Positions 1-20,009 of a DNA stretch of 64,000 bases are shown piece by piece. Origin of the DNA: Whalleya microplaca (taxonomy: Eukaryota; Ascomycota; Sordariomycetes; Xylariales; Xylariaceae); assembly GCA_022497155.1 (NCBI GenBank), contig MU385713.1, positions 372,001 to 436,000 on the forward strand. Reading direction: 5' to 3'. How positions within the stretch are numbered: the first letter of the stretch is position 1; each line of letters starts with the position of its first letter. The notes under the pieces are model-generated. The model saw only the letters and a list, made by a program, of their open reading frames with translations, was not told where the DNA came from and made no database searches. The position numbers and the translations under genes were made by a program.

Positions 1-620
1 ACACACCAATAAGATAACTCAAAAACTTCCGTGACTTGGTTGGTGCTAACATATATACCCAGTGATACTGACCACCCGATGTTGGTGCCCTACACGGAAC
101 GTTAGTTATGATTGGCTCTTTTGGATTCCCACTCCCAAAGACGATTTTGTACATTGATGCTAGTTCTCCCATACTCGCAAAGACACACAAGGTGCCAATC
201 CAGACGATGATGTAGCCGTAAATAGCACCTGCGTAGCCGCCATTCTCGAATGACTGCAGAAATAGTCTACGGATATAGTTAGGTTTTATTAAGCAACGTG
301 CATAGTGACGAAGAGACATACACAAGTTCTCCCTCCCAAGTGTTCATCACCGTACAGCTAAATCCAAGCATAGACATTAAGGCAAAGTTGCGCTACAAAT
401 ATCAAAAGTTCAACAATCAGCCATGAGTATTAGGGGTAGATGTTCTCACCTTAAGAACAGGCACTTTCCCAAGATGGGAAAGAACTTGATTGTCACGTTC
501 GACAAGTAACTGTGCACGCCTTACTGCTGTTTCAGTTGGGAGCCGCTCAGTGTTAAGCTCAGTGGATATTGCTTCATTTTCATTGCGCTTAAAAGTTTCC
601 ATTTCGTAGTCTTTCGGCAT
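1..620 (-). CDS. APC-family amino acid/choline permease, N-terminal part
   Basis: Plasma-membrane transporter of the fungal amino acid/GABA/choline permease group; the C-terminal part lies beyond the left edge. Exons read from splice signals: 620-450, 392-322, 266-153 and 89 onward, all phase-consistent. After a hydrophilic cytosolic N-terminus of about 57 residues comes a first membrane segment (LGFSCTVMNTWEG), then NGGYAGAIYGYIIVWIGTL, then MAPTSGGQYHWVYM, the signature seen in GABA and choline permeases. The start ATG precedes an acidic tail with no signal peptide, as usual in the family. Family assignment is firm; the substrate cannot be told from this fragment. Confidence 0.85.
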
Positions 621-1915
621 CTTCCCTGTGCTTCTTCGACGTCTGTTTAGGTGGATAAAAAGCTTTAAGAAGTTGTAATTCTATACGTTATTAGTAAGAA
701 TAGAGATATTGAATATGCGCGGCACAAGGACTATCGGAAAGAGATACAACTCTAGAGGAAGCGTTAGCCTGCGTATCCTTGGACAAAACTTCAGCCCTGG
801 AATATCTCTCACTTTCTAACTACACATAAATTACATTGTAACATAATGAAGTATGTTATTCGCACGCATATGCAGCGACATCGGTACCTACTGCCAACGT
901 CCAACGGTCGCGGCAGTCGAAGCCAACCAATCCACATAAGCTTTGTGGCACATCCAAGATTAGCATGTGTGGATTTATGCTTTTCGGATGCTTGCGACGT
1001 CAAAGATAGACAGGCCATGCTACAGGTAGTCACAAATACTCGACAAGGCTAAACGCGTGGAAGTGGTAGTGATTGGGATACTGGATGAACGCATAACATT
1101 GCGACGTAGTCTTGCGCGACCTACTGGATTCGTGACTGGTCCCGAAGATGAATAGGTAACCATGCTTTCCGGTTGGTAACCAACGAACACTAGCTACATG
1201 AACAGCCAGCTTTCTTCACTGCAAGTAGAATGAATCGCCATAGAGATGCATTTGAAGGATTCTCCAATGTCCAAGCCATTCGGCCCGCTTAAAAGTGTGT
1301 TGGTTCACATTACAGCGACGGGGAGGGAAACACAGCATCCAGTGTTACTACAAGTCAGAAAGAATCTCCGCAGTAAGTCCCCAATGCACCTATTATGGCA
1401 GCATGGTGCGCGACTCGTGGGGATTGCCCTACTTTTCCGAGAAAGAATGTGACAATCATCTTTTCGGCTGTCGGCACTAGCATACAGTGGATGGGCACCA
1501 TTCTGCACACGCCGTAGTGAGATTTCAACAAGTGCTCGGTACCTCAGTTGGCTGGCTATTATCCCTGTCACAGTGTCATAAATCAGGAGTCATATTGTGC
1601 ATGAAGGCCATAATGCGGGAATCAGTTCGATTAGGGTGCAACACAGCAACATAACATACAAGATGGGGGTTTATCCATTGTATCCCATTCCAATCAATGG
1701 TAGGTCGAGTCAAGCTTTCGCCAACACCTTACCCCCACACTTTGCTAGATCACTGGAACCAATAATCTTACAAGATACATCGCGGCTCATTTATGTATAT
1801 GATAGGTATTGCAAATACGTACTAAACGAAGTGAAAGCTCAAAAGTCAGCATTATCATTAGAAGAGGAAAAAAGGCTAAGCTTGACTGGAAACTTTGTAC
1901 CTTGGTTCGACTAAG
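621..1915. other. Intergenic, no supported gene
   Basis: Several short overlapping open frames occur on both strands, the longest 105 codons (1597-1914, plus), but none shows a recognisable family, splice pattern or signal. It contains the promoter of the permease and the 3' flank of the membrane protein gene. Confidence 0.5.
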
Positions 1916-3218
1916 TTATTTCTTACTATTTACCTCCAGCGCTGACGACCGTGTAACCCCCCAAGTCCTGACTTGCTTAATGAGTTTTGCTTCGCTAGAG
2001 TGACTTCCAGTTTCCCAATCACCCTTAACATTTACTGTATCAACGGTGACTGAAGCAGTCTGTGTAGAGCTTGCGTGCCCAAGGTTTGACAACTCGTGTG
2101 ATGCGGCATGGGTAGATCTGGACTGGCTTGTAAAGAGAGAACCGCGTTCTCGGCTTTGGCTATATCCAGAGGCAGAGATTGACTTCCCTGTAGCGTTCGC
2201 ACGACGTCGAATATCATCACTCCTAATCAACCCTGACTCCAGACTGTCGAGAAATGGTTTTAAATATGGAGCACAGGCTGCTATAATACCTAGACTTTGG
2301 GCTAACGACATTGAAAGGCTAAGGGACCAGTACCTAAACGTTGCATCTTCGTGGTTCGGTAATTTTTGGGACTCTTGCACCTGCCAAATAATTGCGGCAA
2401 TGGTTCTATTTCTTATTAGTACGTAATTTCGAGATACGCACCCCAAGAGACTTACAGGATCCGGGTGGCAAAGCACGATGAGACCACAACTTTGCGTTTA
2501 AGTCGGGTCTGTAGTTTCCATACTACCGTAATGGAAAACCATATCAGACAAACATCAAGTAAGATGTTCACCACATTGATATAATTCCACATAGACCCTT
2601 GATTTATACAGTCATTCGTAAGAAGACTCCATATTTTTGGAGTATTGCACTGGAACAGCAATATTGGGATTGATGTCAATGCCCAGACGAGCGTGGCCAC
2701 GGTAAGCACCCATGACAGGGCTCTATGGAGAGTGATGGGAGAGATCACTCTGATAAAAAATATGGCGGATAGTTTCGACAGAGCCTGACTCGCTATGAAA
2801 AGTACATTTGCCGCGTAATAAGACTTAAAAGTTAGTATTTGATAGTATTAATACTGAATAGGGAAGGACATACGCACCTTTTGAAAAGCTACAAGGTTGT
2901 CGTTTGAAAGATTTTCGAGATGTTGTCCCAGTCCATTTGCAACTCCAATAGATGTTGCGATTGTTTGTGAGATACTAAAAATCTAGCTATATCAGCATAC
3001 TACGTGATCTTGTAACTTTGACAGATGAGACTTACTAGTGACCCTACAATCATGCTATCATCCATGTGGACCGATTTTGACACCCCCCATTTCGTCCCGA
3101 TCCGGGTGATAACAAGCAGAGAACTGCAAATAAGCAGAAACCAAGATACAATATTGACCACAGCCCCGTGGTTGTCGGGACTGTCTTGTAAAGAGACGTG
3201 CTTATCAGAAGAGTTCAT
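1916..3218 (-). CDS. Fungal rhodopsin-like / PTH11-type 7-TM membrane protein
   Basis: Predicted integral membrane protein of about 381 residues. Exons 3218-3036, 2982-2878, 2823-2456 and 2405-1916 are joined by three introns in consistent phase; the second acceptor (TAGCTAG before ATTTTTAG) was chosen because the downstream AG breaks the frame. Seen: short extracellular N-terminus, membrane segment VVNIVSWFLLICSSLLVITR, the polar VHMDDSMIV stretch typical after TM1, YYAANVLFIASQALSKLSAIFF, a Cys-bearing extracellular loop, LLDVCLIWFSITVVWKLQ, FATRILTIAAIIW and a Ser-rich cytosolic tail of about 110 residues. Related proteins include PTH11-type receptors of pathogenic fungi; ligand and partner are unknown. 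Some members are not receptors, so the role is inference. Confidence 0.8.
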
Positions 3219-4715
3219 TTAGCCTTTAGCATGGTACTCTCTTGTTGTATCTCTCCTAGGTACTGAAGTATATTACTTCTAAAGCGGGGATATATAAAGA
3301 GGCTGCCGGCGGTGACTCCCGTGAATCTACTTGTCAGTTGATGGGGCGGTGATATGCCTAACTGAGGTCGGTGTTACTTCGATACTGGCAGCTCTAGTTT
3401 TATACATATATGATAATCAAGTGTTGCACAGAGGGGTTTAACCATCTGTTAACTTTGACTGAAAAGCGAATTCAATTGTGCAGCAGGTAAAATCAGGTGT
3501 CCGGTACCTAACTGCAATCATATCCGGGGATGATGCATAAAGCTACATAGGCTGTAGGAAAGATTTCGCATAAATGAAAGGAGATGTTACATTGCTTAAG
3601 TACCTGGCTACCTGGGTCAAATGGGGGTCATAGATGCTAATTCAAAGACTACAGTTCCTGCATTGAATGGTCACCCAACTACAGCATTATACTGCCTCGG
3701 ACCGAAAGCGGCATAATGATTGTTGCACATAGAACACCAACGTCACATAATGTATAGAGAGTATATATCCAATTGATAGTAGCAAGCAAGATTAGTAAGA
3801 ACTTTTATGCATTGTGACTCGCATTGGAACCTGTAAGCGATTGGGTACCTAGCTTACTGTTGGCGCGATATGCCAGCTGATGCATTGCCGCAAAACCGAC
3901 GCCGTTATCGCGGCAGCAATAACGCCTGATATATCCCCGCGACATGCATCCATATGTATAAAGAACCAGAGTTGGGTCAGTTGCTTCAGAGTAGACCCAA
4001 CTATTCTCTTGTCCATAAAATGTACATTTTACTGATTACTCGTATGTCATTGGCCCAAAAGCGATGCTGCAGTACTCTCCGGGCCAGGTCTACTTCGCAA
4101 GACGAGTGCGTGCGAGTATCCATGTCAGCCGTAGTAATTTTGCAACTCGTCTTCAAGTGGTCATAAGTGCGGATGTCTGTCCAAAGCGCCACGGTGAGCA
4201 CAGGTGTAAACACCTTGTGCGTAAATTTCTTGACAAGGATTTCCAGGTGTAACTTCGACGACTTGAATTCATCGAGATTCATGATTATAAAATGTATGAA
4301 TAAAAATTTTTTTTCTTTTTCTTTTTCTAATTTATTAGTATTGTCATGATGGTGCCTGGCAAGTTAGATACTATGTTTTGAACCGACACTTTCAACTTTC
4401 TCCTTCGTCATGCACTCGATTTTGTGTATACTATGCACGATACTAAGCTCTACCACCCTATAGACTGTAAAGCTTCTCACCGCACTACTAAATTGACATC
4501 TCGCTTCTACGTACCATTCATTGGGCGTGCTATCACCTGTGGCTAGAAGGCCTGGCATGGCGGACCAGGTATCAAGGGAGCGAAGCCACAAAAGTCAGCT
4601 TGTATCAATTAACTAATCTATATAAGACTAAAGAAAGAGACCCCTTTCTTTGTGTTCGCAATTTAATTCTCCCTGCTTCAATCTTACCTTCCTATCTCTC
4701 ACCATTTTATTGACG
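3219..4715. other. Intergenic, AT-rich, no supported gene
   Basis: No convincing coding structure. A pyrimidine-rich tract (about 4308-4330) and several short shadow frames are present. The end of the interval is the promoter of the acetyltransferase gene. Confidence 0.5.
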
Positions 4716-5504
4716 ATGACCCTAAAGCTCCATGAGCTTACAAACGAGGATGAGTTCAAGTTGGTGGTCGATATAGAGCACGAGGCTTATAGCAATCCTT
4801 TTAATGGCGTATGGGAAATCACAAAAGGTTCCTCCACGGAAGAATGCTGTGCCCGCCAATTTTCATGGCACAGGAACGATTCCAGTAGCCACTGGATCTA
4901 TGTCACCGACGAAGCGAGTGGTGATGTGATTGGTGGGACGCAATGGCATATTCACGAGACAAATCCATACGCTGTGGAGCAGCCAATGCGAACAGCTTAT
5001 TGGTGGCCTGAAGGTATGTTATAACTAGGAGAAAGTGCGACACCGCATGCAGATACTAAGATAGGAGATCTACAAGGTCCAATGAAGCAGATAGGAGACC
5101 AGCTCATCCGTGACTTGAGAATGCATCGCCCTGGCCATATGAGCAAACCACATCTGCGTCAGTCCTGCTTACATTTCTTTCCATGGACTAATTAATTAAT
5201 TCGGATTCCAACAGTGATATCTTATTGCTTTGTTGGTTCTATGCACAGGAATCGAGGCGCCGCAAGCTTGATGTTAAAATGGGGATTGGAAAAAGCAGAC
5301 GATTTAGGCCTGGACACTTTCGTCGAATCCACCGAAGTAGCTCGTAGAACATACGAGAAACATGGATTTAACGTTATTGGTGATCTTGATATGGATGCGC
5401 ATCTAGAGAACCCGAGTGAGGACTTTAATGCTCTGAGAGAAAGGCTTGGTTGTCCAATTCATGGTTGGATTATGAAGAGGGAGGCCCAAAAGAAGCATAA
5501 TTGA
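4716..5504 (+). CDS. GNAT-family N-acetyltransferase
   Basis: Acetyl-CoA-dependent acetyltransferase of about 226 residues. Exons 4716-5013, 5065-5157 and 5215-5504 are phase-consistent. The start at 4716 (MTLKLHELT) was preferred to an upstream in-frame ATG at 4650 because GNAT proteins usually open with a short beta strand of this kind. Visible: substrate half with WIYVTDEASGDVIGGTQW, then the acetyl-CoA motif A around HRNRGAASLMLKWG and the C-terminal ARRTYEKHGFNVIG segment typical of motif B. It lies 179 bp upstream of the MFS gene on the same strand and near the UstYa/precursor pair, so it may act on the cluster product; that is inference. A general small-molecule or protein acetyltransferase is equally possible. 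Confidence 0.82.
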
Positions 5505-5683
5505 CCCCTTACATGTAATCAAAGACACCACAGTGCCAATTACCTTCTTACATAACATACCATAGCACATTGGATGCGTAAAACTGATGTACCAATGCAT
5601 ATTGACACACGCTACTTCACCTAGACCTGCCTTGAGCATGTCTTGAGAATTGAAATTGAGATTCTTCCCATTATATATCCAAG

Positions 5684-7310
5684 ATGATCGAATCGATCGA
5701 GATAACCTCTGAAGATGCCAATCTGAACGATGCGATGGAAGTCACCAATTCAATGGAGAAAGTACATTTACCCTCGACATTACCTAAGTACATTGCTTCA
5801 GGACAAGCGGTTCTTGTTGACTTTGGCGATGAATCCGACATATCAAATCCTCAAAATTGGTCTTCGAAACTAAAATGGTCTCTCATCGTAATGGTATCTA
5901 CTTTGGATTTTGCTGTGCAAGTCTTCCTTGCTCCTGAATTGAAGATGTTCGCTTATCCTTCCATTCTTCAGAACTCTCGCGACAATTATATGTGCGCCTG
6001 TTGCCCCCCAGATTATGGATGAGTTCAAAGAGGAGAAAACCTCATATAGAACTCTCATCGTATCAATCTGGGAACTAGGCGAAATTCTCGGACCGCTCAT
6101 TGTTGCTCCTCTATCTGAGCTTCATGGACGGCTCTACTTTTACCACGCTGGCACTATCCTCTTCATTGTATTCTCCACAGCTTGCGCTTTGAGTACCAAT
6201 ATCCAGATGCTGGTAACATTCCGCTTTTTGAACGGGATGGCAGTTGTATCTACCGCACTCAATCCTAGCATGGTGGGTGATCTCTTCCCAGTTGAGCAGC
6301 GAGGCAGTGCAATGGCAATGGTAGGACTTGCCCCAATGCTTGGACCTGTTGTTGGTCCCATTATAGGAGGTTACATTGGTGATGCACTAGGATGGCGCTG
6401 GTGCTTTTGGCTCATCACTATCATTTGTGGCCTTCTCGAGATATGCTTTCTCGTGTTGTTACGGGAAACGTATGCGGTCCAGATCCTGAAGAGAAAAGCA
6501 AAGCAACTTCGGAAAGAGACACATAACCCTAACATAAAGTCCAAGTACGAAACCGAACATACAGCGCTGCAACTGCTTAAAACTGCCTGTATACGTCCCT
6601 TACTATTACTTTTCACGTCACCCGTCTTGTTTCTTATGTCTCTATACGTCGGTGTTGTCTACGGATATCTCTACCTTGTTATGACAACCATCACAACTGT
6701 CTTCGAAAGTTCTTATCACTTTTCATCAAGTGCCGTCGGCCTCAGCTTTCTGGGGCTCGGTGAGTTCTAGCTTAGACCCTATTCATTTCGTTGCTTGCTG
6801 ATTTTCTCTACGTACTTAGGGTTTGGCTGTGTAATTGGCGTTTTCTTATGCCGTGCCACTCTTGATCTCTGGGTTCGGCGAAAATCCAAAATTAGTCAGA
6901 TGCGACCAGAGCAGCGTCTCCCGCCCGTCATCTTCGGTGGGTTCATTCTTCCTATTGGTCTCTTCATATATGGTTGGACAGCCGAGTTCCAAATTCAGTC
7001 CATGGCGCCAATCATTGCAACTGGAATTCTCGGGGTGGGACTCGTATCTACCACAATCCCGGTGCGAAGTTACTTGGTTGATGCATTCGGAATATATGCC
7101 GCAAGCGCAATTGCAGGTTGCGCTGTGTTTAGAAACGTTGGTGGAACCTTCGTTCCACTCGCGGGACCACCGCTGTACCGACAGCTAGGGCTGGGCTGGG
7201 GAAACTCGACATTGGGTTTCATTGCACTAGCCTTCATACCTGTCCCGCTACTCTTGATGAGATATGGTCAGGCTCTGAGACTGAGGGACAAGCGAAAACT
7301 CGAAGAGTGA
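5684..7310 (+). CDS. MFS transporter (DHA1-like drug/metabolite exporter)
   Basis: Twelve-helix exporter of 503 residues. Exons 5684-5916, 5972-6759 and 6820-7310. The first intron (5917-5971) is read as a GC-AG intron with donor GCAAGT; only this splice keeps frame and restores the helix DFAVTLATIICAPVAPQIM. Further evidence: soluble N-terminus ending NPQNWSSKLKW, a motif A-like SELHGR loop, the ERGSAMAMVG-type region (VEQRGSAMAMVGLAPMLG) and antiporter motif C (GPVVGPIIGGYIG), then a central loop with LRETYA and a second six-helix half. Proton-coupled export is known for the family. Position beside the RiPP precursor and UstYa suggests self-protection or secretion of the cluster product, which is inference. 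Confidence 0.9.
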
Positions 7311-8314
7311 ATACACCTAAATCATGTGATAGTATTAGGTCTAGATCCAAGCCTCAGTGAAATGTCGCATATGAGTGTCTCGCCTGAATGTATACTTTTG
7401 GGGGGTTTATCCTAATTGAGGATATCCTCATGTCAATTTCATTGGATATTATAGTTATTTCATGTACTCTTTCATTCAAACCACCTTGGAAGTCTACAGG
7501 ATGATAGCTGAAATATTGTACCAAGGTTGAGAAATAATTAGGGTAATGTACGCGAATCTATCTCAGTGTCTTCGATAATTTGCACATATATGACATTCGA
7601 TCATGTAAACAACGGAAGCTAAGGTGTATCGTACGGTGTTATGCTACCATGCAGATATCTTCTCGGGGTTATTTGGCTCTTAAGGTTGCGTTGCGTTGCA
7701 TTGCATGTGCGCATGGAAGCGGCGCGGGAGCATCACATACCTACGTACTTAGATGTATGATGCCTGGAATCAATTCTCGCAAGGTATTGCCTGCAACTTG
7801 TGGACATGCATGATTCAAATGTCTTTGTGTAAGGCTGCGAGAAAATACTGTATCTACGTGCAAGTATAGATTAAATCTGTATCGGGTTTTGATACTTAGT
7901 CCAGCATCGGGCTTTAAGACTTAATCCTAGCCTTGCAAGGCTTGAAGGATCCGAATTCCATCCGTGATCAGTCGGCGTACAATGTAACTTCTAGTTAAAT
8001 TTGCAAGATACTGATATTAACTGATATTTCGATTACTGATTGTGGAGGAGATTTTGGGGCCGCGCAAGGCACACAGGGTGTGCGAAGGGGGTAGGTACTA
8101 CGTGAAAAGACCACCAACTTTTCATACCGGGGTAGAGCATAAAAATGGTGTGATAATATTTTTGCGTACCAGGCTATCTAAATCTTTCCCTGAGAGGAAT
8201 CTAGCTATTAATTCACCGGAAACAGGACAAAAACAGTACTCATCTTAACCTAGCCATAAGGGTGCAGCCGAATAAGTAGTACGCTCAACTTTATGTGGAG
8301 CTCTCATTCTACTC
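7311..8314. other. Convergent intergenic region
   Basis: 3' flanks of the MFS gene and the UstYa-like gene, which are transcribed toward each other. No coding frame or repeat worth reporting was seen. Confidence 0.5.
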
Positions 8315-9338
8315 TCAGTCGAACCAACTCCATTTCTTCTCATCTGCAGGCCTCCAATCCTTACCCTTTCTAAAATATTCTCGTACTCTTTCTAATTCAG
8401 GACTACCCTCCGGACAAAATCTCATTCTCGGAAGCTGACTTGGCTGATTATCTTCTAAGGTATGGTTTCCATAGCGATAACAGCCCGGATGAGCAAGCGT
8501 CCATTCTTGTAATGCGTCCCAGCTACGGCATTTACGAAACTGCTGTGAAGCTGTGACATGAGGTGTTGAGCGGTTCGTGACACGAAGAGTGTCGTCTGCT
8601 TGACAGAAGGTATCTGCAAGCATTTGGTCTAAGCAGTGAATAACGTGCGCGGGCTCTATCGAGGGGGGCAAGGATAATCGGTAGTCTCTAAACGCTCGAT
8701 ATACGTTTTTCTGTAAGAAATCTTTAGCATAAAACTGGCTTAAGCATTCCAATATAGCTACCTACAAGGCAATGCAGACTGTGATAAGCGTTCACAAAGT
8801 AGAGGGACTTGTCGGTATCCCAAGGGAATGTAGTGCCTTCAGATAATCCTTTCTCCTTTGCCCATAACTTAGGTACGGCAACAATACCTGAGTCTATGTC
8901 GAGGCGATCCCAAAGATGGTCTCGTACGTCGTCATCAGTGTCGGTGTATCCACTGCTCTGGTTCCAAAACACCTCCACGTCGCCTTCTTTCAGTCCGGCT
9001 AAAGAAGACTATCAGTAATGTCTCTTCAATCCCCTCATGAGGATATAGGCCGTACCGTATTTTGACCGAAGAGTCCAATTATCGTTCTTAGTGTTAGGCG
9101 AGACAGAAAGCGTAAACACGCTAAACTGTAAAATATTCAAAGTAATTGAAAGAATAATCAAGAGTATCAGAACCAGGTTGAACCGAGAAAGTCGAGTGTT
9201 ATCCGTCTTTGTGTTTGGATTGTGTGAGGATTCAAGGTGTTCTATGTCCTCAGTTGATTCTTTACCCGTCAGGGGCTTATATTCGTGCTTTCTAGTCATT
9301 ATGGATAGAGAAGTTTTAATATGTATAGCATTCCTCAT
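8315..9338 (-). CDS. UstYa-like oxidase (DUF3328), RiPP-cyclising enzyme
   Basis: Membrane-anchored protein of about 303 residues (290 if the second ATG at 9299 is used, whose MTRKHEYKPL start looks more typical). Exons 9338-9056, 8998-8766 and 8710-8315; introns of 57 and 55 nt keep phase. One N-terminal membrane helix (FNLVLILLIILSITLNILQF) is followed by the luminal DUF3328 domain with both family-defining HxxHC motifs: HSLHC at the end of exon 2 and HVIHC early in exon 3, about 35 residues apart. Splicing puts KNVYRAFRDY directly after HSLHCL, as in family members. Homologues such as UstYa/UstYb, PhomYa and AprY catalyse oxidative cyclisation of Tyr-containing core peptides. The gene is divergent from a Kex2-type repeat precursor 438 bp away, which supports that role. 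Confidence 0.93.
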
Positions 9339-9776
9339 GTTATTGCAACTAAAAACGATGTGAAAATCGGTTGATTGTCAAGTGATGGTGCAAAAGTTAG
9401 AGGACCGGGTTATCGTGCGATTGCAGATCTTGGCACTCCTCCCTATGGAGCTGACGGTGGTCATATTCTCATATGAAATATGGCACAGAAGAGTGCAGTA
9501 CTCCCTTGTAACACCTTCCTCTTGCATAGGCACCCCACGTTGGTACGGCCAATGGCTTTGTCCAGGCCTAGACGACTGTTCTCAGTTTGAATAATTGCAT
9601 ATTATGTGTTCCTACTTATTGACCCGACTTAGGAAACTGTTTATAACATGTCTTTACATCCACTCGATTTCTAGCTAAACTCCCCAGAATCCAACCATAC
9701 GCTTCGTCAAGCTCAAAATAATCCAATCAATATCACTACAAACACATTTTCTCCAATACAGACTCTAACGCACAAT
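9339..9776. promoter_or_regulatory. Shared divergent promoter of UstYa-like gene and RiPP precursor
   Basis: The 438 bp between the two start codons carries no supported gene. Toward the precursor there is a TTTATAAC element near 9640, about 137 bp upstream of its ATG, then a C/A-rich leader with an ATCCAATCAA (CCAAT) sequence near 9720. Head-to-head arrangement implies coordinated expression of precursor and oxidase. The binding factor cannot be named from the sequence. Confidence 0.5.
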
Positions 9777-10074
9777 ATGCTTATTTTCAAGCCTGTTTTG
9801 CTAGTATGTAGTGTTGTATCGATTGCTACTGCGCTTCCACTGAGTAAGTTGAATACTGAGTATTCCCACAGAAAAAGAACTCTGCAATTCCAGTCGGACC
9901 CTCATAAATTAACTATTATCTCAAGATACAGTGATTGACGGCCCCACACTCTTTATCAAGAGGGACGAAGACAACTATTTCGAGCCAGGAAGCTTTGCTA
10001 GGAGGGACGAAGAAACCTACTTTGAGCCTGGAAGCTTTGCGAAGCGGGACGCAATTGTAGAGTCACCGATCTGA
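9777..10074 (+). CDS. Dikaritin-type RiPP precursor peptide with two Kex2-bounded repeats
   Basis: Secreted precursor of 69 residues in two exons, 9777-9843 and 9932-10074, with a canonical GTAAGT...ACAG intron of 88 nt. Exon 1 encodes 22 residues that are essentially the signal peptide (hydrophobic core LLVCSVVSIATAL). Exon 2 gives a short spacer, then KR, a 14-residue unit ending RR, a second unit ending KR, and an 8-residue tail. Both units read DE-x-x-YFEPGSFA-basic-Arg; only positions 3, 4 and 13 vary. Ustiloxin, phomopsin and asperipin precursors share the layout of signal peptide, acidic lead, Tyr-containing core and dibasic site. The neighbouring UstYa-like gene makes this reading much stronger than a pheromone or generic secreted repeat. 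The core is probably YFEPGSF or a part of it (inference). Confidence 0.88.
9964..10047 (+). repeat. Two tandem 42 bp coding repeats (RiPP core units)
   Basis: Units 9964-10005 and 10006-10047 encode DEDNYFEPGSFARR and DEETYFEPGSFAKR. The YFEPGSFA block is identical in protein but differs at four synonymous third positions (TAT/TAC, TTC/TTT, CCA/CCT, GCT/GCG), so the peptide has been conserved after duplication. Confidence 0.92.
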
Positions 10075-13000
10075 TTCAATATTTCAACCGATTAGATGGA
10101 AATTAGCAGTGACCCAGAGAATGGCACTCGCAACACCATCAGAAGTACTGAGGTTGAAGTACTAGATATAATTATAAATAAAGCGGAATGGGTGAATAAG
10201 ACGATGGAACAATGAGTTCATCCGTTCAAGCATCGTGTACCGTGGCAGTCATAACTCTTGGAGAATGTTTGAAATAGCATCGTGAGATTCTAGAATTATA
10301 CATGTCAACCAGCCAGGACAAAAGCTTTGCGTCCAATGTTGGGGCTGTGTTTACGGGACTGCCACGTCGACCTGAAATATATATTATGAGCCACTCCTAG
10401 GTTCGTAATCAATGCAGCAGCTATATAAAACTTGGGCAACAGATGAATCATTGTGGCGTGCCTATTGATCATGATCATGGAGGAATTTTACTCTTGGAGA
10501 GGTAGTAGTTATATTATGAGGAATAGACTGGTCGGAGTGACACGGCTGTTCTGCTTCATACTGGAGAGCAAATCAGCATGGTCCCAGATAACAACTTTGG
10601 ACACTTAAGGACGCATGTAGTGGTTTCTATGGTGATCATCACATAAAGAAGTGCATTGGCTACGAATTCCGATAAGCTACGGCGGCCAAACTCAAACAAA
10701 ATTACTTACTCAAGTCACTCATCATGGTCACCTTGATCAACAGTTGCCTCGGGCAAGTGGAAACAGCAGCGGTGATACACTGGACTATGATATACTTGTG
10801 GCGACATGCTCAAGAGCGGATAATGACCCTAGATAGCGCTGTAGCTCTCCCTAGAACTCTACGGCGAGATATTGGTTCACAATACGATGTTCCTAAGCCG
10901 GATATCAAATTACCTGACACTAGTTTTCAGAACGAGCATGGTATTTAGTTATCAAAAACAATCAGACCCTCTACGTAAACGACAAGGAACAACAATGTCT
11001 AACAAGTGCCTAGGGGGCTGCATATTGAGGAGAGCTCCCCAGACCCCCACGGCTTTCTGACACCCTTGTAACTGTAGCAAGAGATGTGATTTCCGGCATC
11101 TGATCCATGCGAAATAATGTACATAAATACGTTACAACCAGCTGGAAGCGCCGCTCGGCGAATCTCGGAGGTATTCCAAATGGCTGCCATATTAGGTTCT
11201 CCTTTTCTATAGGCGGGATTAGGGGACCCCAAAGATAATAGGAACCTAAGGTTGGGAAACTGCAGCTGAATCACCACAGTGAAATGACTATCATACGTCG
11301 TTCTGTGGGATGGGTTGTACCTACTTCCTATCTACGAAATCGTTGGAGATGTAGCTTCGAGATGCATTGAATTATGAGGTGAGTATGTGACCTCTTAGGC
11401 CTACCTACTGTATTATATAGCGGTTTGGTTGGCAGAGCACACAGTGCGGAAAATGTGCGGCACCCTAGCCAATAGTAATCTAAACCTAGTCCCGACAGTT
11501 TGGTTCCAACCAAGCATTGAACCTGACTGCAGCACTGGGTGACCAAGTGTGCATACTTAGTATGAACACTATTACTATGTAAGGGGAGACAGGTTTTCGG
11601 GATGAATCTTGGTAGTTTTATATTTTCTATGCCGTTGAGAAAAGAATCAGTTTGGTTTATCGCTGGGCAGCAGGTTTTACGACAGCATAGGTAAAAATTG
11701 AAGAACGACAAACATCCACTGGATCAAGCGCTGAAGACAATGTAGCAAGTCTCAAAATTAACATCTTTTCCAATAGCTCGTAGAAAAACTGGAATTTTCG
11801 TTAAACAGTTAGCATCTTGTTGCACCGAGACCTTGCTGTGAGCGTTAGTGGTAGTTATAGTATATGTGACTACTTGACCAATGAAGGGGATTGTATAGAC
11901 CAATGTAAATCTGGTCGTAGATTATTGAAAGTAATAAGTCTATGATAAGAGTAGTAATATATAGCACTACATAGCCAGTCAGCTGACTAATTGCAACAAT
12001 AGGGGTAGTTGTTACTTACCACTGCTAGTATGGAGCTTGAATAAATAGTTGTTCCGAGCGCTTTGTATATAAATAGGATCTTCTCACACAGTAGGAGCTC
12101 ACTTAGAAAGGGACAGCGCTCAATTTACTGGTTGCGATCAAGGCAGCGTTCAAATGACAACTATACTGTCTTGGGACAGGGTGTCGGGGTAAAGGAGGTG
12201 CCGCTTCATGGCTTAACTGATCAGAGGTATTCAAGTCAACGAAACAAAAGAATCACTTATAACGGCGATTGATCGAAAGGAGAGATGTGTCTATTATCGG
12301 CGGCGAGGCCGTCTGAGCTGTGTATGTGCTATCTGAGAGTAAAAGAAAAAGACAAGCGATATATATGTGCCACGGCACACTAGCCCCATAACAATACACA
12401 CAAAAACTGTGATACTAGCATTTAACCACAAACGAGCGAAAGAGAGAGAGAGAGAGAGGCGGGGGAACGTTGTCATAGTAAAAACAAACGGACTTGTTAC
12501 ATACGCTGCTAACAGTTTACGCTCCCCGTGCCAAACGTCCAAACTTGTTGAATTAAATGTCATAAACACTGTTATGAGCCGAAAATAACCTAATATTAGT
12601 AGCACAGGTTGAGGCTGACATTTGTCTCGGGCTTGAATGGATATTCATTTTCTTACGGACGTCCTGAGGAAGAACAACATGTTTCAACACGTTTTGATCG
12701 TACCTAACAATAATGACAAATGCTGAGTTTCAGACGCAGTCAATTTCTCGCGGCCAGTTACTTTCTGTCTCCATCAAAGTTGGAGTGCTTGAGGAACTAT
12801 GGACTGACTTCGTTAAGGGGGAGAAGACGTATGTATCTTTCCTACGGGGTTCAAAACTTTGTCTTAGCACGCAGTATATATGTATATAATGTTAATTATC
12901 GGTTCTTTTCTATGTCAAGGGAGAGGTTATTTTAGAAGCAATTGTGACTCCTTAGTTATTAACAAATTGCTACAGTCATGGGATAAACCTGTAGTTATGG

Positions 13001-13461
13001 CTTTGTGGATTCGGAAATATTGTAGGACATGTCAAATAACGTATGTTAGTCTTTATTACGTAAACTAGCGGGGGACTTAAATCTGTTTCTGCATGTAATA
13101 TACTTCACATTACTCCTCTAACGCAGATTCTGGGGACAGTCTCCAAGCTAGTTAGCATACTTTGACTAGATAAGTATTCTTACCAGTCAAAATTCAATCA
13201 GCCGTTGTGTTATGTCAAATGTCATGGGGTATGGTACAATGCAGGTATACATAAGGAAAATCTCATGTTTTGAACTAATGGTATCTCTTTCAAAGTTTGT
13301 ACAATAAAACCCGACAGCATATATACCCTATTCCTCATGTGCCCATCCCCCCTAAACCGAACAATGCACGCTGTGTACCCAAAATAAATAGCTCCCTTTT
13401 CCGTTTACTCTCGTAGTTTACAAGACTTGTCATATAGCCGTGTCTCTGCACCATGGTTCGC
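10075..13461. other. Gene-poor AT-rich stretch
   Basis: About 3.4 kb without a frame I can support. Short frames on both strands lack family signatures. I looked here for a second UstYa-like gene, tyrosinase, peptidase or reductase of the RiPP pathway and saw none, but small exons could escape a manual reading. It may be a decayed repeat region. Confidence 0.45.
12441..12458. repeat. (AG)9 microsatellite
   Basis: Perfect dinucleotide run in the gene-poor stretch, with no associated gene. Confidence 0.9.
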
Positions 13462-14699
13462 TTAGGCGGTGGCCGATGCAGATGCAGAAGAAGTGCTGTT
13501 GGAACTGCCAGGAGGGGAACCACCGGGGCCACTACTGCCGGAGTTGGGGTTGGAAACGCCTCCCTCCTTATAAAAGAAAGCAGCGGGGGTGATGTCCTGA
13601 GACGAGGTCGCGTTGATACCGAAAGCGATCCAGGCGAACAGGCCGTCAGTGACATCATCACCGAGATAGGTATACTCGTAGAACGGGTCAACACCGTCGG
13701 TAGCGGTCTCCTCGGACAGGATACTGTCGTCGGCATTCGTAGTGAGCTCCTGTGTGTTGGTGTTGTAGGGCTCCGTCAGCTCGACAGCGGTGATCAGGTC
13801 TTGGTCGAAGAAGGCCTGGCCGACGTGGCTGGCGCTGACGTTGTTGCCCAGAGTGGAGTTGGCGAGGAGAGTGGCGTTCTGGTGGATCATGATGTGGATA
13901 TGAGTGGCGCGGCTAGTGTAATGACCGGGGAATATGGATTCGAACTGAGCGACGCCGTCGGAGTCGGTCTTCTGGATGCCGCGGAGCCAGGTGTTGTTGA
14001 TGTTGCTGTCGTCCGAATTGTCTCCGTTGCCGCTTGCGACAATACCACCATAGACGCCGGTGGCGTTGCAGTGCCACATCTCAACGTAGACATCGGTGAC
14101 AGGCTCGCAGGTGTTGATATCTATAACCTGGTAATCGAGAATGGTATCGACACCTTCCTGGTCCTCGATGACATTTTCTCGGACATACTCGCCGCCAACA
14201 TCTAAATGTTACGCATTAGCAATCGTGATGATGTCCATGCAAATGGAAGCACTGACAATAAGGTCCCTGTGTCACTTCGGGAGTTAGGAGGCAGGAGTTG
14301 TAGCCAGTAAAGAGAGTGGTAGCATCAGTGTTTGGGGTGTAGCCCAGGTCACTGGAATTGTGGTTGGTAGCTAAGACGGAATCAAGATCACGTTTCTTGT
14401 TTAAGCCTCCTGTAACTCATTTAGTACTTCTGACGAGAATGCCTGTGTCGAACCTAGGGACTTTAGAACGTACTCTTAGCTCGTGCTTTTTCAAGCAAGG
14501 CAGCTCGACGTTGAACGTTGCGCTTCTCAACACCACGAGCCTTTAGCTTGGGTGCGCAGTGGTCGAGGTTGGTGCGTTTGACAGAGGAAAGATAATCACG
14601 GCGTTCCTTGATTTCCTGGCTGATATCGTGGCCAGGATGGGCGACAACTGAACCAGCCAGGAAGGCCAAGCCAGAGACGACAGAGGTGGCAAAGCGCAT
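13462..14699 (-). CDS. Secreted intradiol (aromatic ring) dioxygenase-like protein
   Basis: Extracellular protein of about 372 residues related to protocatechuate/catechol 3,4-dioxygenases. Exons 14699-14474, 14409-14257 and 14201-13462, phase-consistent. It starts with a signal peptide (core VVSGLAFLAGSVVA, then HPGHD), has a propeptide-like basic region, then LTPEVTQGPYYVGGEYVREN, the canonical entry to the dioxygenase fold. The iron site is visible in PGHYTSRATHIHIMIH: a Tyr ligand followed by the HIH pair. The C-terminus is a Gly/Ser/Thr-rich tail that may be glycosylated. Secreted members are found in plant-associated and wood-decaying fungi and are thought to act on phenolics from lignin or plant defence. 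Neighbours give no pathway clue. Confidence 0.9.
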
Positions 14700-17119
14700 A
14701 TTTGCTGTTCAGGTGTAGTGAAGCGAAGTATATGTTTCTGAGAACGACAGGAGTAGAACCGACACAGTTCTATAAGTTAAAGAAAGAATGCACGCTGTTG
14801 ATGCTGGTGCTTAAAGAATAGGAAATGCTCGACATGATGGCACTTATATACTATTGCCTCTCATTTCAATACTCATACTATATCGACTCTATGATGCTAC
14901 CTCTACTCTCCGCAGTTGACAGCGGGTGGGTCAATATTCATCATCGTGAGCTCTTGGCGGTCGAGGGTTACGTGTGCAATAGATGTGATGTTACTGGTCA
15001 TCTCCTAGCGCAGGGGTGTATCACCAGTCCATTAATACCGTCAACGACGACGACAGCAACGTCAAAGCCCACAATGTGCCCGAAAAGGGATTGTCCGTGA
15101 AGAACCCGGCATTCATAGCCCCAGAACCCCGGAGCGAACAGCTGAGCTAACGAATCCCCCATCCGCTTTGCAGCAACTACCGCTGGGCCTCAGCCAATGG
15201 CAGATTTCGCATAAGTCAGTCGTAGAGACCAAGCCATCTGCTATCCCAAGTGCACGAACAGCTTGGCAGAAGAAGTGCGTAAGCGAAAATTCGCCCTCTC
15301 TCTCGACTCCACTTACTCGCCCCTGCATTACGCAGTACGTGATTTAATAGAAACAAAACAACAGCATGTGCAAGGCTACTACAGATATGCTATGTAGAGA
15401 TAGGGATGTGGGTTATCTGTCTCCCTGACGCGGAATGTGGGGGTTGAAAACACGCGTACCCCTTGACCAACCACATTCTTTGTATTCGAGTTTCCATTGA
15501 CGGTCATTCGTGACTGGTTCTCAATCCCGTTCCTACCTATGATGCAGTACATATGTGTAGGGCAAAATGATTCCACAATTTCAATTCAGCTGGAAGATAT
15601 TCTAGAAAAAATTGTTTCGGCGGCCTCGTGGAGTGCGCTATAAATATTTGAGGCTGTTCTAAGGGGCGGGCTAAACCCTTCATATACTAGCTTTGTTTTG
15701 TTTATCCTAGGTAAATGGGTTATAGTCTTTGATATATCCCAATTTGGATCGGGGGAAATCTTTTTTGCTGTCTCGCATAATAAATAAAGAGATCTACCTG
15801 CCTTAGGTATACAGGCGCAGAACTTGTTATGCCGAAGCAATCATCTCAGCCGCAATGTCGCTTCTACTAGCGTTAGCTGGTTACGCCTCCTCACGACTAC
15901 GGAATACCGAGAGGCTGAGAGGGCGCTATGCTTCAGTTAAGTGGAGAAGGTCCCTTAAATAATGGGGCTTTTCTAACTAAGTACTCCGTACTCAAACCTT
16001 GGTACAGATTCCACATAAAGATATGTAGCTTACGTCCTGTAGATAATCTCGATAACCCCTAGGTACCGTCATACCTAATCTCAACGCCAATCTCCTACAA
16101 AACTGAAGCTACCCACAACTTGTCACACACCTCGGCGCAGTAAAAACATAATCGTCAGCTTCATCGATCTTGTCAGACTCGCTATCATCTTCGCTCACCA
16201 TCCTAATAGTCCCAGCCCTACGCTTAGCTACTACCCACACTCTACCTCAATTATTCACAAGCCAATCGAACACTTCAAATATCACTTCACGCTGGCGTTC
16301 TACTTGAGAGATCGGCAGCTGTAGAGACAGACGTAGCGTAGTGAAGTCAATGAACATAACCGATTAGCTATACCTATAGAACTACCTTGGTTTATTCACA
16401 AACCATTGCTATCTAAATGGATGTATCCACTAGTATGACGAGTTGCTAGGGGCCTTTGCTAATTAAAGCACAATACCATCTTAGTATGAGGAGGTGAATA
16501 GCCGACGCTAGTAGCTCTACTGCTGTTGGAGATATCCTGCTCCTAGGTGCCCATAAGGGCATAAGGTCGCGCTATACAAATTCCCAGAGCTCAACGGTGT
16601 CTACGATCCCTTAAAGGCATTGCCAATCCAGTGAGGCATTGATTTGAGGAGGTGTTATCATCGAATATTGCCCCGTCTTCCTACTAGCCATCCAAAAGGC
16701 TTAGCTTTCGCTATGCCTAGTGACGCTACAAGCGGAAGAAACGTACTACAATAAATCCACACAAGAGATCAGGAGCAGTATTCTGTAAGAGATTGTGAGA
16801 CTTGTAGACTTGTGTGTGCAAGGGAGCTTGATTCATTGACTATCAATGAGTCCCGGAGGGACTCATATGCTATAGCTATGGAGGATTCACGACTCGTTGA
16901 TCTCGTTGGTCATTCTTCCCTGCAATCTCCTTTTTCCGAAAAACAACGCAAAAACAATCCCCACGTCCATCGTCCCCGTTGTGGCAGCATCGAGTGATGC
17001 TTTGTGACAGCATCGGTATGTGTATGTGACAGCATCTTTGTGAAATGCTGAATCGAACTCAAATTGTGTAAAAGAAAACCATGTAGGCGAACCCCTCTTT
17101 AAGATTACCTGGTGCGGAA
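14700..17119. other. Intergenic, repeat remnants, no supported gene
   Basis: Contains the promoter of the dioxygenase gene and about 2 kb of AT-rich DNA with short frames (for example 15586-15840, minus, 84 codons) that I cannot assign. Near 16985-17045 there are three spaced copies of a TGwCAGCATC motif. Confidence 0.45.
16846..16866. repeat. Small perfect hairpin
   Basis: ATGAGTCCC-GGA-GGGACTCAT: 9 bp arms with a 3 nt loop. No transcript context is visible, so a terminator or RNA role is not claimed. Confidence 0.6.
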
Positions 17120-18145
17120 TCAGGCCACCGGAATCTCCTGGGCCACACCACCGGACGGGGGAGGATCTTGATAATCGTCGGGACCATGGTCATCGCCGGG
17201 AATGTCGCCGCCCATATCGTCAGCTTCGGGGTTATCAGCTTCGCTGTCGGAGCTAGAACCGTCGACCCATGCCTCTACGACGTCGCCAGCTTCTAGGGCC
17301 TTCTCTTTGTGCAGCTTCCGCGCGTGGCGGAACATCCGTTGCTGTGCTATACCATATAGTCAGTATTTTTCTATATATATCTCCCCAGCTAGTCATCTAA
17401 TATTCTTAGGTAGATTCAAAGAATACCAAGCTTTCAAATATATATTATATAAGAGTTTCGCTCTTCAAGCAGAAGGGAAGGGAAGGGAAGGGTTATATGT
17501 GTCACTATATGCTACTTACTAGAGTACCCATGGTTGTGCTCACAGTCACCAACCCATCCGCACTCGATTTTTCCGTTCTCGTCCACGGTCAGAGGCAGCA
17601 GGTGGTTGTCTAAATGCATAATTATAGCTTCCTCTGTATCGAAGACGTCGCCGCAGATACCATCATGGAGCTGAAAGTGGCAGCGTTTGCCGATATGAAC
17701 GTCGTCATCATGCTGCTTTCGAGTCTCACGTGTCTTGTACATCTTCCCGCAGAAGCGGCAGAATTGGCTCCGATCCTCTGGATGCACTGGAATAGGATGT
17801 GTTAGAATATACTATTCTGGTCTGGGGAAGAAAAACCAGAATACAACTTTGGGTTGACCTACGGCGGTTCCATGAAGCATCAAAGGCACGCTGATACATG
17901 GTTACGTACTCTCGGGGGAGAGGACCATTGCGGATCGTGGCAACAGGGTGAGGGTGCGGTCGCGGTCGCTGATGGTCGGGAGATGTTGCCGCTGCAACAG
18001 GCTGCACACCTGTACCAGGTTGCTCACCTGAACCAGGCTGGGCATCTGGAGCAGGCCGCGGACCCGGAGCCGGCACAGTTGGGACAGCCGGGACCAGCGG
18101 GACCAGAGGGTATTGACCGTCATCAATGTGTTCACGATCCATCAT
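17120..18145 (-). CDS. Small C2H2-type zinc-finger protein
   Basis: Protein of about 258 residues. Exons 18145-17863, 17786-17520 and 17346-17120 (phase-consistent); two adjacent ATGs open the frame. N-terminal half is Pro/Val/Gly-rich and disordered. The middle has a C2H2 finger, FCRFCGKMYK...HDDDVH (C-x2-C ... H-x4-H), then two looser Cys/His groups: CHFQLHDGICGDVF...MHLDNH and CGWVGDCEHNH...RHARKLH, the last split by intron 2. The C-terminus is acidic (Asp/Glu/Gly/Pro-rich). DNA or RNA binding is plausible from the fingers; no target can be given. A (AAGGG)n tract lies in intron 2 and a purine-rich minisatellite just upstream. Confidence 0.7.
17473..17493. repeat. (AAGGG)n tract in intron 2 of the zinc-finger gene
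   Basis: Four near-perfect pentamer units on the plus strand, within the intron of the minus-strand gene. Confidence 0.8.
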
Positions 18146-18180
18146 GTAACAAATGCTCAATAGCTTGGTCTTGATTATAG

Positions 18181-18262
18181 GTGATGGGGGGCGATGAGAG
18201 TTGGAGAAGATACGAAGGTGGGAGAGAAGATGGGAGAGAAGATGGGAGTGGGAGTAGTAAAG
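18181..18262. repeat. Purine-rich minisatellite upstream of the zinc-finger gene
   Basis: G/A-rich tract with repeated GGGAGAGAAGAT units, beginning about 40 bp upstream of the start codon, probably in the 5' UTR or core promoter (pyrimidine-rich on the transcribed strand, as common in fungal leaders). Confidence 0.6.
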
Positions 18263-19347
18263 AGGGTTGTAGGTAGGTAGTGTTTTGGGATGGGATGGGG
18301 AGGTAGATGATGTAGGTTTGGGAAGATGTACGAAGATGCGGATGGGCAATATGGGAAGGCAGATGGTGTGTGACGGTGGAGCTGTTAGGAGCTGGAAGTG
18401 CAAATATTAAATGGGGAGGGTGGCAGGTTTTTATACTTGGAAAGAATGAAAATTTTGTGGCTGCAGAGCAGGTGCTCTTCCTATGTACATTCCATATTCA
18501 CTAGCTACTGTTTGTCTATAATCGACGAAAGGGGGCATAGTTGTGGTCCCTCAGTTCGTCGACTACGGAACACTTGGTGATTGGTCCCTCTCCCAACTCT
18601 GCACCTGCTTGTGATTCTTCCTTGACTTAGCCAAGGTCTATCCTAGATTTAATAACTGCAAAAGCTTTATTATAATTCTTATAATTCCCTCCCATGGCTA
18701 TAAATGCTGGAGAAGCCCTGCTGGCTGGCATATCCCAAAACCTGATGGGCCGGATGGACTGTCGAGGATTTCACGTGGCAGGACTTCTACCATATAACAG
18801 CAGCCTTGTCTATATCGATTATTCTGCAAATTAAACAGTCCTAGGACTTAGAAGCAAGGAGTTGTATGCAGCCCTCTTGTTAAAGGTAACGGGCTCGAAA
18901 GGAACAAGGTCATTGTATTTATAGGCCGGACATAGCCCGTTACCACTCTGAACAAATCACAATACATACAACTGTCAGAAGGGTTTCGTGGCTGTGGAAT
19001 AGAAATTCTTCTAGAGCTATATGTGTAATATTAGGATAATAGGGAATATGACGCCTAATAGGTATAGTATTCCACCTATTCCTACGGCCGCACATGTTGG
19101 CGAATCGGCACAAAATCTAAAGTTATATGCAATGTTATATGGCAACTAGGGTCCCTTGTAGCAGAATAGCAGGTACCTATTGGGGAAATATATTCAGACG
19201 AAGTTTGTCTACTAGTGCCAGTGAGGTCATCCGGTTTTTTTCATCCATCGAATTGGCAATAACGTGGCAAGTGATAAGGGATTACTTTGACCGCGACTGT
19301 TAGGTTATAATATGCTAGAAAGTCTAGGTCTCTAGTCCTAATCCATA

Positions 19348-20009
19348 TCAATCTACAGCGATACTAATAACTCTGAACATTCTGGCATGGTAGCTTAGCC
19401 TCCAACGCACTTTGGTCGATTGGTGATCACGCCATATTCCGTCCCAGATCTGCTGTGGCAACCACTCGGAAAATCCTACCATCAAGCTGCTTAGCACGAA
19501 TTTGTATAGCACGGAGCCATATGTACCAGCAGTGGAAATCGAATGGAACAGCCTCCTTATTCTACCTTTACCATATCTAGCATCTAGTAGAGGTATACAA
19601 CCATGATCGAGAGTCCTTATACTTAAGCTAACTCCATAGTGCATAGACAGTTTCCTGCGATGCCCACAGAATAGTTCCAATGCCGCTTCATCACCTGCCT
19701 TAGAAGCTATGGGTTTAAGGCCACAGAAAGCAATCATAGTCAATAGAACGATTATTGATCCGACAGCCCCTGTCAACATGCGTCCAACGCTTCCATCAAT
19801 TCAATTCTACGAAATCTTGATTTGAATTCAGTGGTTACCCACCTAGGTATCCCGAAAGTCACCTCTAGATGTTTTGCTACTCGCTGCGCCTGTATCTCGT
19901 GGTATCCGGGCCGGCTCTGGTTAGGCAGACACAGAGAAGAATTATCTTCAGAAGGAGTATTAGTGGGTGCTTGCGGGCGATAGTGATCAGGGACGCTGGC
20001 ATAGCGCAT
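19348..20009 (-). pseudogene. Possible degraded coding remnants
   Basis: Two open stretches in different frames, 20009-19773 (78 codons) and 19779-19348 (143 codons, starting with a hydrophobic helix VGSIIVLLTMIAFCGL), look more protein-like than the surroundings, but I recognise neither and cannot join them with a convincing intron. They end about 60 bp from the MITE. A broken gene is one reading; chance open frames are another. Confidence 0.25.

What the first reader, a model, noticed from the sequence alone, without database searches (positions are those of the whole stretch)
8315..10074. Undescribed dikaritin-type RiPP cassette: UstYa-like oxidase head-to-head with a two-repeat Kex2 precursor
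Seen: a DUF3328 protein with both HxxHC motifs and a membrane anchor, and 438 bp away on the opposite strand a 69-residue two-exon secreted peptide with KR/RR/KR-bounded units containing YFEPGSF. Known: ustiloxin, phomopsin and asperipin-2a are made this way, with a Tyr residue of the core cyclised oxidatively. The core differs from those I know (YAIG, YVIPID-like, FYYTGY), so the product should be a new cyclic peptide. A single UstYa-like gene beside a transporter recalls the compact asperipin cluster.
Basis: partly seen in the sequence, partly recalled or inferred. Interest (0 to 1): 0.94.

Follow-up and report, generated by a model that had tools for sequence, protein, structure and literature searches.

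The report
Small fungal cyclic-peptide gene cassette
A fungus carries a small gene set, a secreted two-copy peptide precursor beside a copper-oxidase-type gene and an exporter gene, that most likely makes a new ring-shaped peptide of an already known type.

Summary
At 9299-8315 (-) is an intact three-exon UstYa/DUF3328 gene (Pfam E 2.4e-20; 290 aa, identical to a Whalleya microplaca protein). At 9777-10074 (+), 477 bp away head to head, is a two-exon precursor with two dibasic-bounded units sharing YFEPGSFA. It is already an annotated hypothetical protein (71 aa there; intron acceptor 6 nt earlier). The repeat is not chance: 4 of 4 base differences between the two 8-codon cores are silent (P 0.0007-0.003), and randomised DNA gave 0 such pairs. 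The adjacent MFS gene belongs with the cassette: for 8 of 25 UstYa relatives an MFS relative sits on a contig of exactly the same length. By my judgement 7 of 18 UstYa loci in this genome carry such a precursor, so the kind is ordinary here. No precursor relative was found. No tyrosinase, NmrA-type reductase or S41 peptidase was found within 150 kb. Best reading: a minimal dikaritin-type RiPP cassette with a new core, probably a Tyr-O ether macrocycle. Product and crosslink are inferred.

The parts
9777..9843 (+). precursor exon 1: start codon, putative signal peptide (MLIFKPVLLVCSVVSIATA)
   Evidence: matches annotated protein P0001; signal peptide by eye
9844..9931 (+). intron of the precursor gene, 88 nt; the annotated model ends it at 9925 (82 nt)
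9932..10074 (+). precursor exon 2: rest of leader, KR, two core units, tail, stop
   Evidence: own-genome protein search finds only this copy
9964..10005 (+). repeat unit 1: DEDNYFEPGSFA-RR
10006..10047 (+). repeat unit 2: DEETYFEPGSFA-KR
9300..9776 (.). 477 bp between the two start codons, probable shared (bidirectional) promoter
   Evidence: for the length; promoter role inferred
8315..9299 (-). UstYa/DUF3328 oxidase gene, exons 9299-9056, 8998-8766, 8710-8315; 290 aa; HSLHC and HVIHC motifs
   Evidence: PF11807; identical to P0002; motifs in 17 of 17
5684..7310 (+). MFS transporter, exons 5684-5916, 5972-6759, 6820-7310, 503 aa; first intron has a GC-AG boundary (my reading)
   Evidence: PF07690; splicing; relative on a contig of the same length as the UstYa relative in 8 cases
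4716..5504 (+). GNAT acetyltransferase gene (at least two exons); membership of the cassette not tested
   Evidence: PF13673/PF00583 on 5196-5504; start by eye

Best explanation
A minimal dikaritin-type RiPP cassette. The precursor enters the secretory pathway by its signal peptide; Kex2 (in trans) cuts after KR/RR and frees two dodecapeptide units (DEDN- and DEET-YFEPGSFA) once the basic residues are trimmed. The membrane-anchored UstYa enzyme, a copper oxidase acting in the same lumen, uses the acidic DED/DEE stretch as a recognition element and oxidatively crosslinks the conserved YFEPGSF core, most likely from the Tyr phenol oxygen to a beta-carbon of a Phe (or another residue), to give a macrocycle 2 H lighter per bond. 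The MFS protein exports the product or protects the maker. SHOWN: genes, motifs, repeat, constraint on the core, linkage of MFS and UstYa in some relatives. INFERRED: processing, copper use, crosslink and its atoms, export, biological role.
For: UstYa family match; both HxxHC motifs in 17 of 17 aligned relatives, with further invariant cysteines C195, C220, C236, C258. In the (low-confidence) model each motif lies on a helix, 152-170 and 179-194, pLDDT about 70-83 there, as described for CctR. Two dibasic-bounded near-identical units, absent from strict randomised control. Four of four base differences in the core are silent, P 0.0007-0.003 by mutation model, while the start of the unit varies (D/E, N/T). 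MFS and UstYa relatives on contigs of identical length in 8 cases, among them one of 8,715 and one of 37,711 bases. In the same genome 7 of 18 UstYa loci have such a precursor by my judgement, head to head with the nearest UstYa match in 5 of 7 (coordinates). Published: DUF3328 genes concentrate next to Kex2-repeat genes and 65.6% of repeats there contain Tyr (PMC7329392, section read); CctR, a DUF3328 protein, is a binuclear copper enzyme whose HxxHC residues are essential (PMC12435403, passages); asperipin-2a has a Tyr-O to Phe-Cbeta ether made by such an enzyme (PMC12186524, passages).
Against: No relative of the precursor among 5.8 billion proteins except itself, though UstYa relatives are many: conservation of the peptide is untested. 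No transcript or metabolite data. Only two core copies. DUF3328 enzymes also hydroxylate and halogenate (PMC12435403), and two of the other precursors here have no Tyr in the repeat, so a Tyr ether is not certain. Same-contig linkage was seen for 8 of 25 non-self UstYa hits; 17 have no such partner, and in Ciborinia camelliae, Tricladium varicosporioides and Rutstroemia sp. the two hits lie on contigs of different length. One search scored only the 7999 candidates sharing most words and listed no Whalleya entry for the MFS. The structure model is poor overall (mean pLDDT 57.6, pTM 0.37).
Confidence: 0.85

Rival explanations
1. The precursor is a secreted Kex2-processed peptide that stays linear (a signal or host-directed peptide), and the UstYa enzyme acts on something else.
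For: Most Kex2-repeat proteins (6120 of 7878) have no DUF3328 neighbour and some are linear pheromones (PMC7329392). DUF3328 proteins also act in non-ribosomal peptide and polyketide pathways (PMC12048977).
Against: Head-to-head adjacency over 477 bp; similar pairing at six other UstYa loci of this genome by my judgement; no NRPS or PKS domain found in window 1-5000 and 9801-19800; the core contains Tyr.
Confidence: 0.1
2. UstYa modifies the core, but by hydroxylation, desaturation or chlorination instead of a macrocycle.
For: DUF3328 proteins catalyse hydroxylation and halogenation as well as macrocyclisation (PMC12435403, abstract and passages).
Against: Tyr followed by Phe in a constrained core, a single DUF3328 gene and a transporter, as in the asperipin cluster where the enzyme makes Tyr-O ethers (PMC6514808, passages; PMC12186524).
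Confidence: 0.2
3. The GNAT acetyltransferase at 4716-5504 is a cassette member that caps the peptide, giving an N-acetylated product, like what is proposed for the GNAT-containing lichen clan R2 clusters. (Compatible with the best explanation.)
For: GNAT domain beside the MFS gene, same strand. Lichen clan R2 has one ustY homologue with GNAT genes and no reductase (PMC12048977, passages).
Against: GNAT linkage in relatives was not tested; GNAT genes are common (recalled); in clan R2 no repeat precursor was found by its authors.
Confidence: 0.2
4. The repeat is a chance open frame beside an unrelated UstYa gene.
For: No homologue of the peptide found.
Against: 0 strict hits in 40 x 262,668 randomised bases; silent-only core changes; an annotated two-exon model exists.
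Confidence: 0.03

Closest known systems
Asperipin-2a cluster (aprA, aprY, aprT, aprR) of Aspergillus flavus
   Same: One DUF3328 gene, a repeat precursor, a transporter, no tyrosinase; core with Tyr and Phe (description from PMC6514808, passages).
   Different: Different core, only two repeats, no NmrA-type reductase found on this contig (that aprR-type reductases fall in NmrA is recalled); GNAT beside the transporter.
Ustiloxin and phomopsin clusters (dikaritins)
   Same: UstYa-family enzyme; ustiloxin cores are flanked by ED and KR motifs (PMC6514808), here DED/DEE and RR/KR.
   Different: Those use a tyrosinase and two (ustiloxin) or five (phomopsin) DUF3328 proteins (PMC7329392). Here one DUF3328 gene; nearest tyrosinase match on the contig is about 160 kb away, beside another UstYa locus.
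Kex2-processed repeat proteins (KEPs) of Umemura 2020
   Same: Signal peptide and tandem units of 8 or more residues between Kex2 sites.
   Different: That survey required three or more repeats (PMC7329392, section read); this precursor has two and would have been passed over.
Lichen clan R2 RiPP clusters (Parmeliaceae)
   Same: Single ustY homologue, GNAT, no tyrosinase or reductase (PMC12048977, passages).
   Different: No repeat precursor and no multidrug transporter reported there; here both are present.
Six other UstYa-precursor loci of the same genome (L013, L022, L025, L029, L034, L039)
   Same: Dibasic-bounded repeats near UstYa.
   Different: Unlike cores; the nearest UstYa paralogue among the fetched loci (L022) is 35% identical over 184 residues.

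Membership tests
UstYa / DUF3328 (PF11807) | Profile match above the curated cut-off | tested here: met
   73.8 bits against 25, E 2.4e-20, residues 31-233 on profile 4-220 of 220
UstYa / DUF3328 (PF11807) | HxxHC(x)nHxxHC motif | tested here: met
   H154SLHC and H181VIHC; two motifs in 17 of 17 aligned sequences
UstYa / DUF3328 (PF11807) | Binuclear copper, O2-dependent activity | not testable with these tools
   known for CctR (PMC12435403); here only a low-confidence model that puts both motifs on helices
Dikaritin RiPP, 2021 definition (DUF3328 enzyme as class-defining; as told in PMC12048977) | DUF3328 protein with two HxxHC motifs | tested here: met
Dikaritin RiPP, 2021 definition (DUF3328 enzyme as class-defining; as told in PMC12048977) | Precursor with signal peptide and repeated cores at Kex2 sites | tested here: met
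   two units; signal peptide judged by eye, no predictor run
Dikaritin RiPP, 2021 definition (DUF3328 enzyme as class-defining; as told in PMC12048977) | Oxidatively modified peptide product | not testable with these tools
   needs metabolomics
Dikaritin RiPP, 2015 five-gene definition (as told in PMC12048977) | Tyrosinase in the cluster | tested here: not met
   18 PF00264 matches in the genome, the nearest on this contig at C4:541270-541981, about 160 kb away
Dikaritin RiPP, 2015 five-gene definition (as told in PMC12048977) | Several DUF3328 proteins | tested here: not met
   one UstYa locus here; the next on C4 is about 154 kb away
Dikaritin RiPP, 2015 five-gene definition (as told in PMC12048977) | Methyltransferase in the cluster | tested here: inconclusive
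   none in six-frame Pfam scans of window 1-5000 and 9801-19800; 5001-9800 seen as ORFs and genes; left of the window and most of 19801-64000 not scanned
Dikaritin RiPP, 2015 five-gene definition (as told in PMC12048977) | Transporter or peptidase | tested here: met
   MFS at 5684-7310; no S41 peptidase on the contig (3 matches, none on C4)
KEP sensu Umemura 2020 | Three or more tandem repeats of 8 or more residues between Kex2 sites | tested here: not met
   two repeats; criterion in PMC7329392
Asperipin-2a type cluster | Precursor, one UstY, transporter and reductase | tested here: not met
   first three present; 53 NmrA matches in the genome, none on C4; other reductase types only scanned for in window 1-5000 and 9801-19800

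The most novel reading that the evidence does not exclude
A new, Hypoxylaceae-wide subfamily of minimal dikaritins (UstYa plus MFS, possibly plus a peptide N-acetyltransferase) that makes Tyr-O-to-Phe crosslinked peptides from precursors with only one or two cores. Such precursors fall below the three-repeat threshold of published genome mining, so the subfamily has been missed although the enzyme is conserved from Hypoxylon to Helotiales.
Probability: 0.35. Interest if true: 0.55.

Novelty: new member of a known kind. Interest (0 to 1): 0.36.

Why it matters
If right, it adds a peptide core seen in no other protein searched (YFEPGSF) and an orthologous UstYa-MFS pair in a chemically prolific fungal family whose RiPPs are little explored: a survey of 13 Hypoxylaceae species and one relative reported, in the passages I saw, ustiloxin-like RiPP clusters only, and said that the true diversity could not be estimated (PMC8403587). 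Tyr next to Phe, with a second Phe six residues after the Tyr, makes the crosslink site directly testable against the copper-dependent asperipin cyclase. It also shows that a two-core precursor escapes the three-repeat filter. As a kind of system it is ordinary for ascomycetes.

Tried and rejected
Precursor relatives: one database search, 2 candidates, 1 hit, which is the precursor itself; own genome, single copy. No held paper with the letters YFEPGS. No solved structure related to UstYa by sequence, single or profile. NCBIfam: nothing for either protein. Pfam: nothing for the precursor.

Too weak for a fold search, so none was made; only the helix assignment at the motifs is used.

Pheromone: considered and rejected; the units lack the pheromone-like pattern (recalled), and pheromone genes almost never lie beside DUF3328 genes (PMC7329392, abstract).

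Rows dropped before counting the own-genome precursors: L012, L021, L027 and window 39096-39146 as arginine- or lysine-rich low complexity, L014 as doubtful.

Plant peptide hormone mimicry of the core: thought of, no evidence, not pursued.

One search was a filing that lacked fields.

Full report
WHAT WAS CHECKED. The window is contig C4:372001-436000 of a 48.1-Mb, 114-contig genome. Database entries identical or near-identical to its proteins name Whalleya microplaca; the contig length given there, 1,513,493, equals that of C4. So the source is that species, a xylarialean fungus (placement recalled).

THE ENZYME. The minus-strand gene has three exons (9299-9056, 8998-8766, 8710-8315; introns of 57 and 55 nt) and gives 290 residues identical to the annotated protein P0002. 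Pfam UstYa (PF11807) matches with E 2.4e-20. HSLHC and HVIHC are the two HxxHC motifs; two such motifs stand in 17 of 17 aligned sequences, being P0002 and 16 of the other 25 hits (the nine left out were short, partial or unnamed). Four more cysteines (C195, C220, C236, C258) are invariant in that alignment. In the DUF3328 protein CctR the double motif binds two copper ions, alanine mutants of it lose activity, and further cysteines form disulfides that hold the dimer (PMC12435403, passages read). No solved structure is related by sequence. The predicted model is weak (mean pLDDT 57.6, pTM 0.37) but puts a long helix at 36-64, the likely anchor, and each motif on a helix (152-170, 179-194) at pLDDT of about 70-83.

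THE PRECURSOR. 9777-9843 plus 9932-10074 gives 69 residues. The annotated P0001 has 71, through an acceptor 6 nt earlier. Both keep the frame, the signal-like start, KR, two units DEDNYFEPGSFA-RR and DEETYFEPGSFA-KR, and a short tail. The two units differ at 8 of 42 bases. Within the 8 core codons 4 of 4 differences are silent; under random substitution this has a probability of 0.0007 to 0.003. Outside the core two differences change a residue (D/E, N/T), one exchanges R for K inside a dibasic site, and one is silent. So the YFEPGSFA part looks constrained as a peptide, independent of any relative. Two similar consecutive dibasic-bounded units were seen 0 times in 40 randomised copies of the 262,668 bases then held, against 4 real cases.

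SURROUNDINGS. On the plus strand to the left is an intact MFS transporter (5684-7310; first intron read with a GC-AG boundary) and before it a GNAT acetyltransferase. Six-frame Pfam scans of 1-5000 and 9801-19800 show only a fungal rhodopsin domain and a Dioxygenase_C domain at E 0.001 or better. Beyond 19800 only the SPX/EXS gene and one frame of 31000-33000 were scanned; DNA left of the window was not. Because ustiloxin and phomopsin tyrosinases lie 7 to 8 genes from the precursor (PMC7329392), the whole genome was asked: 18 tyrosinase matches, the only ones on C4 at 541,270-541,981, about 160 kb off; 53 NmrA matches and 3 S41 peptidase matches, none on C4. These searches score only the best candidates.

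RELATIVES. UstYa has 26 hits including itself: ten Hypoxylon and Daldinia entries at 63-74% identity, then Helotiales and others at 38-61%, plus a fragment at 86% over 24% of the query. The MFS has 25 hits at E 1e-150 or better, out of 7999 scored candidates. Contig lengths coincide to the base in 8 pairs: H. rubiginosum 740,719; H. fuscum 72,170; H. sp. FL1284 3,666,037; H. cercidicola 2,046,320; H. crocopeplum 586,670; H. sp. NC1633 137,927; Lachnellula arida 37,711; and an unnamed 8,715-base contig. I read equal length as the same contig. The other 17 of 25 non-self UstYa hits have no such partner; clustering at 90% and the E cut-off may hide some, but in Ciborinia, Tricladium and Rutstroemia the hits are on contigs of different length. 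The precursor has no relative in the same database. As that search needs shared five-residue words and annotated small proteins, this is inconclusive, not negative.

SAME GENOME. PF11807 gives 34 matches, which I group into 18 loci by position. All 18 were scanned: the window, nine loci in the 20 stretches (mostly 10 kb on either side) and eight in shorter stretches of 5-7 kb. By my judgement seven carry a dibasic-bounded repeat peptide: the window, C63 (L013), C23 (L022), C27 (L025, 21 units), C13 (L029), C78 (L034) and C4 near 538.9 kb (L039). Relative to the nearest UstYa match, five of the seven are head to head; C23 is tail to tail (a second UstYa match on its other side is head to head) and C4 near 538.9 kb is tandem. 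At looser settings the scan gave 9 real hits, of which I dropped L014 and L021, and 3 in 30 randomised copies of 321,668 bases. Several of the other precursors also show equal residues with different silent bases (by eye). The other eleven loci gave no accepted hit; with the shorter flanks and exon-cut frames some may be missed. The C4 locus near 535-542 kb, with two UstYa matches, a repeat peptide and a tyrosinase, looks like a fuller, ustiloxin-type cluster and shows by contrast how minimal the window's cassette is.

WHAT IT IS. A minimal dikaritin-type RiPP cassette. It meets the DUF3328-based definition, not the older five-gene one, and not the three-repeat definition of Kex2-repeat proteins (PMC7329392, sections read; PMC12048977, passages). 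It works most like the asperipin-2a system, in which one DUF3328 enzyme forms Tyr-O ethers to beta-carbons (PMC6514808, passages; PMC12186524, passages), but no such reductase was found. With Tyr followed directly by Phe and a second Phe six residues after the Tyr, a Tyr-O to Phe-Cbeta link is the first guess (about 0.35 for that exact linkage; inference). The GNAT next to the transporter recalls lichen clan R2 (PMC12048977) but its link is untested.

NOVELTY. The core is in no held paper and in no other protein searched. The kind is common: 1758 DUF3328-linked repeat precursors in a 2020 survey, and seven loci here. Searches for Hypoxylaceae, Xylariales or Whalleya together with RiPP words and for Whalleya microplaca listed no paper whose title or abstract start treats this cluster (20 of 34, 5 of 5 and 10 of 13,030 papers were listed); of these only PMC8403587, PMC12048977, PMC6514808 and PMC7329392 were opened, in part. 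Most subscription journals and all bioRxiv preprints are not held.

Noticed in passing
G000 C4 about 534,995-541,981 (L031, L039): A second UstYa locus on the same contig, about 154 kb from the window's one, with two UstYa matches, a repeat peptide (unit with VDFDAVGDEY-KR) and tyrosinase matches at 541,270-541,981: it looks like a fuller, ustiloxin-type dikaritin cluster.
   Followed up: partly
L025:3370-4377 (G000 C27, about 286.4-287.4 kb): A 21-unit Kex2-type repeat gene (unit SDADAATKYIAD-KR) about 1.6 kb from a UstYa match; two more groups of UstYa matches lie within 20 kb.
   Followed up: partly
L013:8381-8533, L022:275-352, L029:6588-6770, L034:5821 onward: Four further UstYa-linked repeat precursors with unlike cores; those of L022 and L034 have no Tyr in the repeat, but Phe, or Trp and Phe, so not every UstYa partner here can use a Tyr phenol.
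   Followed up: partly
window 5917-5971: First intron of the MFS gene reads with a GC-AG boundary; no Whalleya entry for this transporter appeared among the listed database hits, so the public gene model may be missing or different.
   Followed up: no
window 9920-9931: Tandem intron acceptors 6 nt apart in the precursor gene; both keep the frame and change the leader by two residues.
   Followed up: partly
window 4716-5504: GNAT acetyltransferase gene next to the MFS transporter, possible cassette member.
   Followed up: no
window 13462-14208 (-), about 2450-3010 (-), 27593-29407 (+): Dioxygenase_C protein, fungal rhodopsin-domain protein and an SPX/EXS protein; probably unrelated neighbours.
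   Followed up: no
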